A stretch of DNA of 64,000 bases, taken from the NCBI RefSeq assembly GCF_024199925.1, contig NZ_JANADR010000001.1, positions 8,869,501-8,933,500 of the forward strand. Reading direction: 5' to 3'. The notes under the pieces are model-generated. The model saw nothing but the letters and a program-made list of their open reading frames with translations. It did no database searches and had not been told where the DNA came from. Within the stretch, counting starts at the first letter, position 1, and the number at the start of each line of letters is the position of its first letter. Shown piece after piece: positions 13,615 to 34,821 of the stretch. Both the position numbers and the translations under genes were made by a program. Origin of the DNA: Bradyrhizobium sp. CCGUVB1N3. GTDB lineage: Bacteria; Pseudomonadota; Alphaproteobacteria; Rhizobiales; Xanthobacteraceae.

Positions 13615-14295
13615 CTAAATGCGCTGATCGCGCCAGCAATGCAAAAGTTCATTGCTGTCGGCGACGAGACCGAGATGAAGGGAAACCATTTTGAGCGCGG
13701 CCGCTTCCATAGCCGGATCGGTACCGCGAACGAGATCGGCGAGGACCGTCACTCGATAGCCGAGATTGCTGGCGTCGAAGGCGCTGTTCAGCACGCAGCA
13801 GTCGGCCATGCAGCCGGTGAACACGATGCGACGCGTACCGAGATTCCGCAGGAGAAAGTCCAGGTCGGATGGATAGAAGGCGGAGAGGCGCTTCTTTGTG
13901 TTCACGATTAGATCGTCTTCCTTGACCTCTGTAGCAAACTGAGTCCACCGGCTCCCCTCGATAGCGTGAGCGTCAGAGTTGGCGATCGGACCGACATGTA
14001 GCGGGAACACCATACGCCATGCAGCTTTCACCCCATGGATGTCGTCAGAGCCGTTCTTCCGGAGTTCGCTGCGCACATGGATCACTGGCACACCGAGCGC
14101 GCGCGCGGCACGATGAAAGACATCTACCTTGGAAACGATCTCTCGGGCGCGGGGCGCCGGACAAGGGCAGTCGGGGTCGTCGGCCAAATGTCCCTGATGT
14201 AGGTCGATGCAGACTGCGACAGTCTGCTTGAGCGATGTGAATTCCTCAAAGCCGGGCGGCAATTCGCGTTGGTCGCCATACACATAGGTCTTCAT
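13615..14295 (-). CDS. Isochorismatase-family cysteine amidohydrolase
   Basis: The protein has 226 residues. The catalytic triad of the family is visible: D31 in VAVCIDLHQGH, K134 or K135 in VNTKKRLSAFY, and C167 in TGCMADCCVLNSAFDA, followed by the usual GYRVTVLAD strand. Members hydrolyse amide or ureido bonds (maleamate, ureidoacrylate, biuret, nicotinamide) or the vinyl ether of isochorismate. Here, beside a purine-type importer and a molybdenum hydroxylase island, an amidase or ureidase step is the better guess. It is divergent from the importer operon and shares its 140-bp control region. Confidence 0.8.
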   Translation of the reverse strand: MKTYVYGDQRELPPGFEEFTSLKQTVAVCIDLHQGHLADDPDCPCPAPRAREIVSKVDVFHRAARALGVPVIHVRSELRKNGSDDIHGVKAAWRMVFPLHVGPIANSDAHAIEGSRWTQFATEVKEDDLIVNTKKRLSAFYPSDLDFLLRNLGTRRIVFTGCMADCCVLNSAFDASNLGYRVTVLADLVRGTDPAMEAAALKMVSLHLGLVADSNELLHCWRDQRI

Positions 14296-14341
14296 GGCTC
14301 ACCTCCGATTGCTCTATGCACGCCGGTTAGCCATGGCCTGC

Positions 14342-14403
14342 GCGCAAAATATGCTTGCGCAATTGAATAACATAGAACAGACTTGAGCGACATTAAAAAT
14401 GTC
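14342..14403. promoter_or_regulatory. Two operator-like dyads between amidohydrolase and importer genes
   Basis: GCGCAA (14342-14347) and TTGCGC (14355-14360) flank a 7-base spacer. GACATT (14389-14394) and AATGTC (14398-14403) flank AAA. Both lie in the short region between divergent start codons, so a local regulator could control both transcripts. The binding protein is not known. Confidence 0.4.
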
Positions 14404-14435
14404 ACGCATCGATTTCGATCGCGGAGGGGAAACAT

Positions 14436-15521
14436 ATGCGCGCAATGACGAAGCCATTCCTTTTCTTGTCTGCAATTGCTGCGGCCACCTTCGGTCAGGC
14501 CGTAGCTGTCGAGTTTAAGCTCAAGGGCGAGATCAAGCCAGCCTGGATCTACCTCAACGCCAAGAATGACGGCGGCTGGCAGCAAGCGATCGACGAAGCG
14601 CGACAGAAGATCGAGAAGGATCTCAACTTGAAGATCCCATTCGTCGAAAACGTGCCGGACGAGGCGGCCAAGATCGAACCCGCGGCAGAACTCTATATCA
14701 AGCGGGGCTACAACGTCATTCTCGGAAGTTCGTTCGGCTATTCCGACGCGTTTAAGGCGCTCGCGCAGAAACATCCCGACGTCGCGTTCATCGACATTTC
14801 CGGTACGCAGCACGCTGCCAATCTCGGTGGCGTCTATGGCAAGACCTACGAAAGCCAGTATCTCTGCGGTATGGCGGCAGGCGCCATGTCGAAGTCCGGC
14901 AAGATTGGCTTCGTAGCCGCGCATCCACTTGGCCTTGTCAACTGGACGATCAATGCGTACGCGCTCGGCGCTCAGGCCGTGAATCCCAAAGCCGTCGTCT
15001 ATGCCGTCTTTACTGGTAGCTGGAACGATCCCGTGAAGGAGCGAACCGCCGCGAAGGCGCTGATCGATCAGGGGGCCGATGTGCTCGGCCAGAACATCGA
15101 TACCGCAACAACACAGATCGTGGCACAAGAACGCGGCGTCTATGGTACGGGACACAATCGCGACCTTCGCGAGTTTGCGCCCAAAGCGACGCTTTGCTCA
15201 TCCGTTTGGGTATGGGATCGTTTCTTTATCCCCGAGCTGAAGAAGATCCAATCCGGCACGTGGACGCCGGATCCATACGGTGATTTTCCGGGTATCGCCG
15301 GCGGCGGCACCGAGATCGCCTGCTGCAATTCGGCAGTTCCTAAGGAAGTGGTCGCCAAGATCGAGGCCGCTCGCAAAGAGATCGTCGATGGCAAACAAGT
15401 CTTCCAGGGACCCCTGCTTGATCGTGATGGTAAAGAGCGCGTGCCGGCGGGTAAGGTTCTTGGCGGCGCCGATCTCTGGAAGATGGACTGGTACGTGAAG
15501 GGCGTCGTGACCCAGAATTGA
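14436..15521 (+). CDS. BMP-family (PnrA-like) ABC transporter substrate-binding protein
   Basis: The protein has 361 residues with a signal peptide ending near AVAVEF, so it is periplasmic. It shows the Bmp pattern: GWQQAIDEARQKIEKDL, GYNVILGSSFGYSDAF, HPDVAFIDISG, and GGVYGKTYESQYLCGMAAG, then GKIGFVAAHPL and INAYALGAQAVNPKAV. BMP-type proteins bind nucleosides, purines or related compounds. GCGGAGGGG precedes the ATG. It is followed by the ATPase and two permeases in the same direction, forming a complete importer. Confidence 0.9.
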   Translation: MRAMTKPFLFLSAIAAATFGQAVAVEFKLKGEIKPAWIYLNAKNDGGWQQAIDEARQKIEKDLNLKIPFVENVPDEAAKIEPAAELYIKRGYNVILGSSFGYSDAFKALAQKHPDVAFIDISGTQHAANLGGVYGKTYESQYLCGMAAGAMSKSGKIGFVAAHPLGLVNWTINAYALGAQAVNPKAVVYAVFTGSWNDPVKERTAAKALIDQGADVLGQNIDTATTQIVAQERGVYGTGHNRDLREFAPKATLCSSVWVWDRFFIPELKKIQSGTWTPDPYGDFPGIAGGGTEIACCNSAVPKEVVAKIEAARKEIVDGKQVFQGPLLDRDGKERVPAGKVLGGADLWKMDWYVKGVVTQN

Positions 15522-15544
15522 TATAGTCCCAGCAGGCGGATTCG

Positions 15545-33611: not shown

Positions 33612-33974
33612 TACCTCGCTGAATCGTTGTTCGTCCAGAACCACGTCGTAGTGTCGCGATCCGAGTTCGGCATCTGCGGAACGATACGCGGCCAATCGAC
33701 CAGATGAAGGTGCGAGCCGGTTGGGACACGATCATCCCAGACTTCCTTCCATTCCGAAACCGGCTTCAGACCGAGGTCGTTGCGGTAGGCTGTCCCATAG
33801 CCGACGCAGCTTGCCAACTCTGGTGCGGTCACAGGAATCGAAGAACATCGAAGCAATGTTCTTCAAATTCGGGATGTCCTCGATGCTCAGAGGTATCGCC
33901 AGATGCATGCGGTCGGCGAAATCTAGACATGATGAAGTCTCTCCGAGACCGGCTCCATTGCCGACATTCATCAA
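33611..33974 (-). pseudogene. Decayed periplasmic-binding-protein-like gene
   Basis: Leftward from 33974 one frame gives RMHLAIPLSIEDIPNLKN, and after a shift near 33850 another frame gives CVGYGTAYRNDLGLKPVSEW and KEVWDDRVPTGSHLHLVDW, ending at 33611. The GYGTAYRNDLGLKPVSEWKEVWD part, split here over two quotes, resembles the middle of extracellular solute-binding proteins. The rest of such a protein is missing. Its stop overlaps the hydrolase start, which suggests a once functional operon order. Confidence 0.35.
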
Positions 33975-33993
33975 ACTTCAGATTTGAGTATGT

Positions 33994-34150
33994 TTCAATA
34001 TCTGTTGAATGCAGCTAATGTGTTCAACCTCCCTCGTTTCGGGCCCGTTTGGCTAATACCACCCGACGCCTGTCCGCGGCAGGGAGAACGTCCCTAACCT
34101 GTGCCGCCATCCCTCGTTTTTAATAATATTCAAATTCATGCAATTTTGAA
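33994..34150. promoter_or_regulatory. Two TTCAA/TTGAA dyads upstream of regulator copy 2
   Basis: TTCAATATCTGTTGAA (33994-34009) is close to the right arm of the dyad at 26741-26775. A second dyad has TTCAA at 34129-34133 and TTGAA at 34146-34150. Both lie between the leftward hydrolase unit and the rightward XRE-cupin gene. They are candidates for the binding site of the two regulators. Confidence 0.45.
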
Positions 34151-34221
34151 ATTGGCATACCAGTAGGTAAGGGCTATTAACTCTTTCGTTCAGACGGATA
34201 GCATTGAAGAGGTTTAGTGAC

Positions 34222-34821
34222 GTGGCTCGGGCTAAAGACGTCGAAACAGAGGCCGCTGAGGATAGTTCGAGCGCAGTTGTTGCCGCGATAGGCAATCGCT
34301 TGCGTATCCTCAGACAGGAACGTGAAATGACCCTTCAGGCTTTGGCTGAGGCCACCGCCCTGAGCCCATCCATGTTGAGCCTGGTTGAACGCGGCCGTGC
34401 CGCCCCGTCTATACAATCATTAATTGTAATAGCAAATGCACTCAATGTTACGATGTCTGATTTGATCGTAACGGAAGAGCCCGGCGAAGAACGGGTCGTC
34501 ATCCGCACGAGCGACCAGCCGTTCGTGAAAACAGCTCAAGATGCCATTCGGCGCGTTCTCCGCGAGGATCGGTCACGCGGTATTTCGCTCGCGGTCAACG
34601 AGTACGAGCCAGAAACAGGAAGCTCTCTGAAGCGCGGAGCTCACAGCGGCTTCGAATACGGTTTCGTGCTGGAGGGCACGCTCACAGTTGAGCTCGAAAA
34701 CGTAACTTACCAACTGAAGGCAGGCGACCTTATTTCGTTCGAATCGAGGCGCCCCCACAGATTTTGGAACAACGGATCGAAGCGCGTTCGCACGCTTTGG
34801 ATCAACCTCAAGGGCGACTAG
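34222..34821 (+). CDS. XRE-family regulator with cupin domain, copy 2
   Basis: The protein has about 199 residues and the same order as the gene at 26072: HTH (IGNRLRILRQEREMTLQAL, LSPSMLSLVERGRAAPS) then cupin (GFEYGFVLEGTLTVELEN, LKAGDLISFESRRPHRFWN). I estimate well over 80 percent identity by eye. The GTG at 34222 follows AAGAGG by nine bases; a TTG at 34204 is also possible. Most differences lie before the HTH and in the linker, so both probably bind the same DNA site while differing little in ligand. Confidence 0.88.
   Translation: MARAKDVETEAAEDSSSAVVAAIGNRLRILRQEREMTLQALAEATALSPSMLSLVERGRAAPSIQSLIVIANALNVTMSDLIVTEEPGEERVVIRTSDQPFVKTAQDAIRRVLREDRSRGISLAVNEYEPETGSSLKRGAHSGFEYGFVLEGTLTVELENVTYQLKAGDLISFESRRPHRFWNNGSKRVRTLWINLKGD

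What the first reader, a model, noticed from the sequence alone, without database searches (positions are those of the whole stretch)
13615..34821. Candidate undescribed pathway for an N-heterocycle or cyclic ureide
The island joins two nucleobase-type uptake systems (BMP ABC importer, NCS2 permease), a multi-subunit Mo hydroxylase with CoxG, a cyclase-family ring hydrolase, a nitrilase-superfamily amidase, an isochorismatase-like amidohydrolase, two cupins, an SDR and an alpha/beta hydrolase. The order fits hydroxylation, ring opening and deamination, like oxidative pyrimidine or nicotinate breakdown, but the usual barbiturase, NicX or urate genes are absent. I know no characterised pathway with this gene set.
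Basis: inference. Interest (0 to 1): 0.8.

Follow-up and report, generated by a model that had tools for sequence, protein, structure and literature searches.

The report
Uncharacterised N-heterocycle breakdown gene island
A soil bacterium carries a compact set of genes that looks like an undescribed route for importing a nucleobase-like ring compound, oxidising it twice with molybdenum enzymes, and splitting it open with water to release ammonia; the same set recurs in distantly related bacteria, but its substrate is unknown.

Summary
The island is real and the gene calls hold up; the host is a Bradyrhizobium (inferred). The set is not a chance assembly: it recurs in Alphaproteobacteria and Actinobacteria, and Bauldia litoralis has most of it in about 24 kb. 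Refinements: (1) the Mo hydroxylase has two large subunits, L1 and L2, sharing one FAD and one Fe-S subunit, old paralogues inherited together; (2) the two cupins are one split bicupin, fused in most actinobacterial loci and fused to the nitrilase in one; (3) nitrilase and isochorismatase look interchangeable: five bicupin loci show only the isochorismatase, in two of them in the nitrilase's slot. Best reading: import, two hydroxylations next to ring nitrogen giving a cyclic ureide or imide, hydrolytic opening by the cyclase-family protein, then amide or ureide hydrolysis to ammonia. The parts parallel the lower nicotine pathway, but its FAD monooxygenase is missing. Neighbours elsewhere (NCS2, D-hydantoinase, PreA, cytosine deaminase, NdmA-like Rieske enzymes) favour a ureide or nucleobase over a pyridine, not decisively. 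Ten literature searches listed no described pathway of this kind. Substrate unknown; new variant of a known kind.

The parts
13615..14295 (-). isochorismatase-family cysteine hydrolase (isoch): candidate amide/ureide hydrolase
   Evidence: PF00857 6.7e-30; best solved relative biuret hydrolase 49 bits, with nicotinamidases, RutB and N-carbamoylsarcosine amidase in the same list; relative sits between cup2 and cyc in L046 and L074
14436..15521 (+). Bmp/PnrA-type substrate-binding protein of an ABC importer
   Evidence: PF02608 5.6e-47
15545..17062 (+). ABC importer ATPase
   Evidence: PF00005, two matched stretches
16998..18167 (+). ABC importer permease 1
   Evidence: PF02653 1.1e-29
18183..19118 (+). 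ABC importer permease 2
   Evidence: PF02653 1.3e-36
19385..19903 (-). MarR regulator, probably of the island
   Evidence: PF01047 4.6e-11; MarR relatives of 46-50% in some cyc-SDR loci
20163..21017 (+). Mo hydroxylase FAD subunit (M)
   Evidence: PF00941 1.4e-45, PF03450 8.2e-24
21014..23320 (+). Mo hydroxylase large subunit L1
   Evidence: best PDB relative quinoline 2-oxidoreductase, 479 bits; L1 clade of 13 rows 100/100
23317..23793 (+). Mo hydroxylase [2Fe-2S] subunit (S)
   Evidence: PF01799 2.3e-30, PF00111 1.2e-9
23790..26075 (+). Mo hydroxylase second large subunit L2
   Evidence: best PDB relative 6-hydroxypseudooxynicotine dehydrogenase, 572 bits; ATGA overlap with S puts the start at 23790
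26072..26680 (-). HTH-cupin transcriptional regulator A
   Evidence: PF01381 5e-14 and PF07883 2.9e-16; relative in 22 of 32 cup2 loci
26794..27171 (+). bicupin half 1; no HxH metal motif seen in its printed sequence; start placed at an internal ATG
   Evidence: PF07883 5e-6, 26.6 bits against a cut-off of 27.2; 38% to the Pantoea protein upstream of its cup2; sequence and start
27183..27584 (+). bicupin half 2 with HxHx3E metal motif
   Evidence: PF07883 4.7e-8; motif; island marker
27581..28423 (+). nitrilase-superfamily amidase (nit)
   Evidence: PF00795 1e-51; 30% to the CN hydrolase of a nicotine plasmid, 4e-20; fused behind the bicupin in L096
28442..29053 (+). CoxG/SRPBCC Mo-hydroxylase accessory protein
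   Evidence: PF06240 1.6e-16
29084..29974 (+). cyclase-family (PF04199) metal-dependent hydrolase (cyc), proposed ring-opening enzyme
   Evidence: PF04199 1.6e-28; HVGTHIDGAMH motif; H46, H50, D52, H56 invariant in 20 rows; low-confidence model matches isatin hydrolases and kynurenine formamidases
30187..31656 (+). NCS2 purine/pyrimidine permease
   Evidence: PF00860 1.4e-61; NF037981 64.8 bits over its cut-off of 40
31875..32684 (-). SDR oxidoreductase, from the second gene set linked to the same cyclase
   Evidence: relative of 60% or more in 26 of 48 cyclase loci without cup2 and in 1 of 32 with it
32745..33695 (-). alpha/beta hydrolase, from the same second set
   Evidence: relative of 45% or more in 20 of 48 cyclase loci without cup2 and in 1 of 32 with it
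34204..34821 (+). HTH-cupin regulator B, related to A
   Evidence: PF01381 1e-11, PF07883 1.2e-16

Best explanation
An inducible uptake-and-catabolism island for an N-heteroaromatic compound, most likely a nucleobase-like ring whose oxidation product is a cyclic ureide or imide. Inferred working: (1) import by the Bmp-type ABC transporter and the NCS2 permease; (2) hydroxylation at two carbons next to ring nitrogen by a Mo hydroxylase that uses two large subunits, L1 for one and L2 for the other position, on shared FAD and Fe-S subunits, with CoxG for maturation; (3) hydrolysis of the resulting ring CO-N bond by the cyclase-family metal enzyme, giving a linear ureido or half-amide acid; (4) cleavage of that amide or ureide by the nitrilase-family enzyme and/or the isochorismatase-family enzyme, releasing ammonia; the bicupin acts on an intermediate near step 4, reaction unknown. 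MarR and two HTH-cupin proteins would be regulators. Shown here by sequence: gene identities, conserved linkage, two-large-subunit architecture, loci in which isoch stands in for nit. Inferred: reaction order, substrate class, roles of bicupin, SDR and alpha/beta hydrolase.
For: Conserved linkage in 80 cyclase loci: of 32 with cup2, M in 23, L1 in 20, S in 21, L2 in 22, nit in 21, CoxG in 22, isoch in 8. Bauldia litoralis: M-L1-S-L2-regulator-cup1-cup2-nit-CoxG-ABC-Rieske-reductase-cyc-CMD-Bmp ABC-isoch in about 24 kb. L1 and L2 are separate groups, each spanning Pseudomonadota and Actinomycetota, with correlated distances (r 0.93, n 13; L1-cyc 0.80, L2-cyc 0.77; shared species history was not removed). 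L1 is 39% to NdhC, L2 41% to KdhC, nit 30% to the CN hydrolase, CoxG 30% to the SRPBCC protein and cyc 26% over 137 aa to the cyclase of a nicotine plasmid, where cyclase opening is hypothesised and the omega-amidase shown (passages of PMC6214936; PMC9304392). Ureide lean: NCS2 over a purine/pyrimidine cut-off; of 7 haloarchaeal plasmid stretches around cyc relatives, 5 have a Mo hydroxylase and at least one NCS2 gene, one of these with a cytosine deaminase above cut-off; D-hydantoinase above cut-off in L024 and PreA above cut-off in L037; the nearest outside relative of L2 lies 11 kb from a hydantoinase/carbamoylase above cut-off; three plasmid relatives of L1 (41-42%) lie in clusters with DUF1116, two of them also with HpxZ.
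Against: No substrate, enzyme assay or expression datum exists. The cyclase is only 26% identical to its nicotine-plasmid counterpart. The closest Mo hydroxylases with solved structures act on quinoline and a hydroxypyridine, and the closest plasmid relative of L1 (Embleya, 44%, L138) lies with an FAD monooxygenase and a maleate-isomerase-type protein, all of which point to a pyridine rather than a ureide. In many loci the cyclase occurs without Mo hydroxylase or bicupin but with SDR and alpha/beta hydrolase, so its substrate may vary. Of the 7 haloarchaeal stretches, L116 has neither Mo hydroxylase nor NCS2, and L118 has NCS2 but no large subunit in the part held. Seven of 32 cup2 loci show neither nit nor isoch within the stretch held, though the record behind one of them (L032) has isoch just beyond it. 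NCS2 relatives of 30% or more were found in 0 of 80 loci; at 25% or more only L097 and L101 show one (27%). D-hydantoinase and PreA are each found in few loci (3 and 1 of 80 at the thresholds).
Confidence: 0.55

Rival explanations
1. Same chemistry on a pyridine: for example isonicotinate or isonicotinamide hydroxylated twice to citrazinate, opened by the cyclase to cis-aconitamide and deamidated to aconitate; or nicotinate via 2,6-dihydroxynicotinate. The isochorismatase would be a carboxamidase.
For: L1 and L2 have as best solved relatives quinoline 2-oxidoreductase and 6-hydroxypseudooxynicotine dehydrogenase; KdhC joins the L2 group at 99/97; gene-for-gene parallel with the nicotine lower pathway; the Embleya relative of L1 lies with an FAD monooxygenase and a maleate-isomerase-type protein, both below their NCBIfam cut-offs; a direct TCA-cycle product would explain why no further carbon-processing genes are in the core. 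The isonicotinate biochemistry in Mycobacterium is recalled, from no call.
Against: NCS2 and Bmp uptake, and hydantoinase, PreA, cytosine deaminase and carbamoylase genes near relatives elsewhere, fit ureides better. Two literature searches listed no bacterial citrazinate gene set (9 of 9 papers listed; 25 of 82), which says little either way.
Confidence: 0.25
2. Oxidative opening like the nic pathway with replaced enzymes: the bicupin is the ring-cleaving dioxygenase, the cyclase a deformylase like kynurenine formamidase, and isoch or nit a maleamate-type amidase.
For: Cupin 2 has an HxHx3E metal motif; the cyclase's only NCBIfam hit is arylformamidase, far below cut-off; quercetin dioxygenase is among weak PDB matches of the L101 bicupin; maleate-isomerase-type relatives in the L024 and Embleya stretches, below cut-off.
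Against: L045 and L073 carry M, L1, S, L2 and cyc, and L040 L1, S, L2 and cyc, with no cup2 in the stretch held; five haloarchaeal clusters have cyc with a Mo hydroxylase and no annotated cupin. So the cyclase seems able to act directly on a Mo-hydroxylase product.
Confidence: 0.12
3. Two unrelated operons side by side: a nucleobase importer with its own hydrolase, and a Mo-hydroxylase/cyclase pathway for something else.
For: The Bmp operon and the Mo operon are separated by a MarR gene with gaps of 266 and 259 bp; a Bmp relative is within reach in only 8 of 80 loci.
Against: Bmp, isoch, Mo genes, bicupin and cyclase lie together in Bauldia (G074), G047 and L074, with Bmp at 37-65% identity.
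Confidence: 0.06

Closest known systems
Lower nicotine (pyridine) pathway of Paenarthrobacter pAO1-like plasmids: NDH, KDH, DHPH, polyketide cyclase, omega-amidase
   Same: Mo hydroxylases related to L1 and L2, cyclase-family protein, nitrilase-superfamily amidase and SRPBCC/CoxG protein in one cluster; hydrolytic C-N opening proposed there
   Different: No FAD monooxygenase or nicotine oxidase here; one M and one S serve two L subunits; bicupin and isochorismatase are additional; cyclase only 26% over 137 aa
Classical oxidative pyrimidine route (uracil dehydrogenase, barbiturase, ureidomalonase; recalled)
   Same: Mo hydroxylase plus ring hydrolase plus ureide-type hydrolase; nucleobase permease
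   Different: No barbiturase-family (PF09663) gene in the island; one lies about 630 kb beyond the window, with no island-type gene recognised in the 20 kb around it
Isatin hydrolase / kynurenine formamidase (PF04199 enzymes)
   Same: Family, fold and metal motif
   Different: 16-19% identity in the structural matches to them, from a low-confidence model; different gene context
Haloarchaeal plasmid clusters of cyclase, Mo hydroxylase and NCS2
   Same: Cyclase 35-41%, Fe-S, large and FAD subunits, CoxG-type protein and NCS2 in 5 of 7 stretches read
   Different: One large subunit, no cupin or nitrilase annotated; an amidohydrolase is present in most (the one of L117 is dihydropyrimidinase-like, below cut-off); substrate also unknown
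Rieske clusters of Rhodococcus ruber MSA14 and Pantoea sp. At-9b plasmids
   Same: Bicupin in both; cyclase and a window-type nitrilase (46%) in R. ruber; isochorismatase (54%) in Pantoea
   Different: In R. ruber NdmA-like and SxtT-like Rieske oxygenases, with relatives in Pantoea; no Mo hydroxylase of this family annotated in the stretches read; a further, different nitrilase in both

Membership tests
Lower nicotine pathway | 2,6-dihydroxypyridine 3-monooxygenase (FAD) | tested here: not met
   No FAD monooxygenase among the 20 island proteins scanned by Pfam. With the Pantoea monooxygenase (30% to DHPH) as query, relatives of 30% or more in 0 of 80 loci; DHPH itself was not used as a query there
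Lower nicotine pathway | KDH-type Mo hydroxylase | tested here: inconclusive
   L2 41% to KdhC and grouped with it, but in a group of its own
Lower nicotine pathway | cyclase plus omega-amidase pair | tested here: inconclusive
   Both families present; 26% over 137 aa and 30% identity
Oxidative pyrimidine (barbiturate) route | barbiturase (AtzD/TrzD family, PF09663) in the cluster | tested here: not met
   Only genome hit at C1:9565672, outside the window
Oxidative pyrimidine (barbiturate) route | uracil to barbiturate activity | not testable with these tools
   needs enzyme assay
Rut pathway | RutA above cut-off | tested here: not met
   best 121.7 bits against a cut-off of 498.3 in the own genome
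Reductive pyrimidine pathway | PreA above cut-off | tested here: not met
   best 32.9 bits against 335 in the own genome
Nic (nicotinate) pathway | NicX-type dioxygenase and NicC-type FAD monooxygenase in the island | tested here: not met
   No island protein matched a family of either kind in Pfam; the rest of the genome was not searched for them
PF04199 cyclase family | family score and HxGTHxDxxxH motif | tested here: met
   1.6e-28; motif
Isatin hydrolase / kynurenine formamidase | activity on isatin or N-formylkynurenine | not testable with these tools
   structure match is to the fold only; arylformamidase model 34 bits against a cut-off of 223
Mo hydroxylase (xanthine oxidase family) | M, S and L subunits with GxGE catalytic motif | tested here: met
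   (motif meaning recalled)

The most novel reading that the evidence does not exclude
A route, listed in none of the literature searches made here and needing no oxygenase, in which two dedicated Mo hydroxylase subunits turn a nucleobase-like heterocycle into a cyclic ureide or imide that a distinct PF04199 clade opens by hydrolysis, a third kind of barbiturase-like ring hydrolase besides the AtzD/barbiturase and amidohydrolase families, with a bicupin as an additional new enzyme and two unrelated amidases that replace each other; spread horizontally through Alphaproteobacteria and Actinobacteria, with a one-large-subunit form in haloarchaea.
Probability: 0.33. Interest if true: 0.68.

Novelty: new variant of a known kind. 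Interest (0 to 1): 0.5.

Why it matters
The gene set recurs in many soil and aquatic bacteria, but nothing searched here names its pathway. Solving it would give a function to a cyclase clade now labelled kynurenine formamidase by some automatic annotation, to an orphan bicupin and to a Mo hydroxylase with paired large subunits, and would identify an N-heterocycle that such bacteria use, probably as a nitrogen source. The conserved core gives a short list of enzymes to assay.

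Tried and rejected
Pfam and NCBIfam names did not settle function: of the Mo subunits, nitrilase and cyclase scanned, none reached an NCBIfam cut-off (the Fe-S subunit was not scanned there). AlphaFold models were poor (bicupin mean pLDDT 62; cyclase 66), so the bicupin model was not searched, and the cyclase matches only restate the family. Ten literature searches listed no match; the paper on HpoH was not held, so HpoH is known to me only from a PMC6214936 passage. A common-substrate reading with the R. ruber and Pantoea Rieske clusters was considered (N-methylated pyridone or purine): the bicupin is shared, but the oxidising enzymes differ, so I did not transfer it. 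The idea that nit and isoch are two successive required steps was weakened by the five loci where only isoch was seen (L034, L035, L046, L074; L032 after extension; L046 is a 4.7 kb contig, so nit could lie outside it). Known-family labels (nic, rut, barbiturase, reductive pyrimidine) were rejected on missing genes.

The tree holds 43 large subunits from 24 chosen loci plus the two of the window, and flags long branches (NdhC and KdhC among them). The distance correlation uses 12 chosen loci and the window. The own genome has other Mo-hydroxylase large subunits too (24 matches to L1), not studied here.

Full report
What was checked. The window lies at 8,869,501-8,933,500 of a 9.88 Mb contig of a 10.4 Mb genome. 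The genus is Bradyrhizobium by inference: same-genus genomes G036 and G047 have contigs whose lengths equal those of B. elkanii WSM2783 and Bradyrhizobium sp. dw_78 records. The left flank holds an IS110-type transposase (8658-9479) and an integrase-core ORF (3573-4589). In the 60 same-genus genomes searched, own genome included, a cyclase of 86% identity or more occurs in 4 (G000, G015, G036, G047); G036 has it with CoxG but no Mo large subunit was recognised in the 40 kb read. The island is therefore accessory and probably horizontally acquired.

Architecture. M, L1, S and L2 overlap by 4 bp each. L1 and L2 are two different large subunits with one FAD and one Fe-S subunit. In a tree of 45 large subunits, L1 relatives form a 13-row clade (100/100) and L2 relatives a 14-row group (88/85) that becomes 15 rows with a Neorhizobium sequence (100/94) and, after one acidimicrobial paralogue joins, 17 rows with KdhC of the nicotine pathway (99/97). 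Each group holds Pseudomonadota and Actinomycetota, and pairwise distances in L1 and L2 correlate (r 0.93 over 13 loci; 0 of 5000 permutations as high), as expected for partners, though shared species history was not removed. Cupins 1 and 2 are one protein split in two: both halves are in one open frame in 10 of 12 actinobacterial loci with cup2 (L079, L086, L088, L090, L092, L095, L096, L101, L102, L103; not seen so in L089 and L099) and in R. ruber. In L096 bicupin and nitrilase are one 621-residue frame. In the window only the second half shows the HxHx3E motif.

Recurrence. By tblastn cup2 occurs in 32, L1 or L2 in 35, both kinds in 23. Among the 32 cup2 loci: M 23, L1 20, S 21, L2 22, regulator 22, nit 21, isoch 8, CoxG 22, CMD-family 15, Bmp 6, NdmA-like Rieske 5, SDR 1, alpha/beta hydrolase 1. 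Among the 48 without cup2: SDR 26, alpha/beta hydrolase 20, branched-chain-type binding protein 17, NMT1-type binding protein 13, L2 12, cytosine deaminase-like 3, D-hydantoinase 3. So the window joins two gene sets that both travel with this cyclase; G015 also joins them within about 30 kb (L133, L142). Bauldia litoralis (G074) has the first set in about 24 kb: M, L1, S, L2, regulator, cup1, cup2, nit, CoxG, a second ABC system, Rieske oxygenase and reductase, cyc, CMD, Bmp ABC, isoch (L140, L134). The cup2 gene is rare: of 299 genomes across the phylum only the own genome has a strong match.

Nitrilase or isochorismatase. Of 32 cup2 loci, 17 have nit only, 4 isoch only, 4 both, 7 neither within the stretch. 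In L046 and L074 isoch sits between cup2 and cyc, where nit usually sits. The record behind L032, one of the seven, has isoch beyond the stretch first held (L144). The two hydrolases therefore look interchangeable, and the core pathway may need only one of them. The isochorismatase's best solved relative is biuret hydrolase; nicotinamidases, RutB and N-carbamoylsarcosine amidase are in the same list, so its sequence alone does not tell ureide from carboxamide.

Mechanism by comparison. On a nicotine plasmid of Arthrobacter (L107) the order is kdhC, Dabb protein, cyclase, FAD monooxygenase, SRPBCC, CN-hydrolase. Window proteins match these: L2-KdhC 41%, L1-NdhC 39%, M-KdhA 40%, S-NdhB 54%, CoxG 30%, nit 30%, cyclase 26% over 137 residues. 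Passages of PMC6214936 state that the pAO1 cyclase is expressed in a nicotine-dependent way and hypothesised to hydrolyse the C-N bond of 2,3,6-trihydroxypyridine, and that the amidase activity was shown; a passage of PMC9304392 gives the same bacterial order. The analogous logic here is two hydroxylations next to ring nitrogen, hydrolysis of the resulting imide or ureide, then amide hydrolysis. The FAD monooxygenase of the nicotine route is absent, so this is not that pathway. L045 and L073 have M, L1, S, L2 and cyc, and L040 L1, S, L2 and cyc, but no cup2 in reach; five of seven haloarchaeal stretches have cyc with a one-large-subunit Mo hydroxylase and no annotated cupin. So the cyclase probably acts directly on a Mo-hydroxylase product.

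Which ring. For a cyclic ureide or nucleobase: NCS2 above a purine/pyrimidine cut-off and Bmp uptake; haloarchaeal clusters with NCS2 genes, one with a cytosine deaminase above cut-off; D-hydantoinase above cut-off near cyc in L024, PreA above cut-off in L037; HyuA relatives in 4 of 80 loci; the nearest outside relative of L2 in one 30-kb stretch with a hydantoinase/carbamoylase above cut-off and a RutA-like protein below it; NdmA-like Rieske oxygenase in 7 of 80 loci (the closest solved relative of the R. ruber protein used as query is NdmA, 183 bits). For a pyridine: the closest solved Mo hydroxylases act on quinoline and a hydroxypyridine; the Embleya relative of L1 lies with an FAD monooxygenase and a maleate-isomerase-type protein; and the nicotine parallel itself. 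NCS2 is seen near the cyclase in few of the 80 loci (none at 30% identity; two at 27%). Several ureide clues come from single loci and some may be neighbours of unrelated function. I put the ureide side ahead, but not by much.

Absence of known routes. In the own genome RutA and PreA do not reach their cut-offs. One barbiturase/cyanuric-acid-hydrolase family gene exists about 630 kb beyond the window, with no island-type gene recognised in the 20 kb around it. Ten searches of an open-licence library listed no match to the set; some searches listed 25 of 690, 20 of 91 and 25 of 82 papers, and subscription papers are mostly not in the library.

Verdict. A real, conserved, uncharacterised catabolic island; a new variant of the known kind 'Mo hydroxylase, ring hydrolase, amidase'. 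The substrate and the bicupin reaction are unknown.

Noticed in passing
window 8658-9479 and 3573-4589: IS110-type transposase and integrase-core ORF in the left flank, consistent with horizontal acquisition of the island.
   Followed up: no
L001, L104, L105 (plasmids of Rhodococcus ruber, Pantoea sp. At-9b, Klebsiella pneumoniae): R. ruber and Pantoea share related pairs of Rieske oxygenases (59% and 50%), and all three share a nitrilase-family protein of 316-366 residues (46% between R. ruber and Pantoea, 99.7% between Pantoea and Klebsiella); the Klebsiella stretch has FrmR and a formaldehyde-detoxifying dehydrogenase. This looks like demethylation of a methylated, possibly nitrile-bearing heterocycle; ricinine is a guess from memory.
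   Followed up: partly
L137, L139, L136: Plasmid Mo-hydroxylase clusters with DUF1116 (AllG-like, recalled), in two of three also HpxZ and an amidase: probably another uncharacterised ureide route.
   Followed up: no
L002, L003, L115, L117, L119: Haloarchaeal plasmid clusters of cyclase, Mo hydroxylase, XdhC, NCS2 and CocE-type hydrolase, in three of five with an amidohydrolase directly beside the Mo genes: a possible archaeal nucleobase degradation route.
   Followed up: partly
L132 13098-19999: UbiD-like decarboxylase (by eye, no family search) and a second, divergent Mo hydroxylase beside the island in Bradyrhizobium G047.
   Followed up: no
L096 1943-3808: Bicupin and nitrilase in one open frame of 621 residues.
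   Followed up: yes
window 26072-26680 and 34204-34821: Two HTH-cupin regulators of the same domain make-up, one inside and one at the right edge of the island.
   Followed up: no
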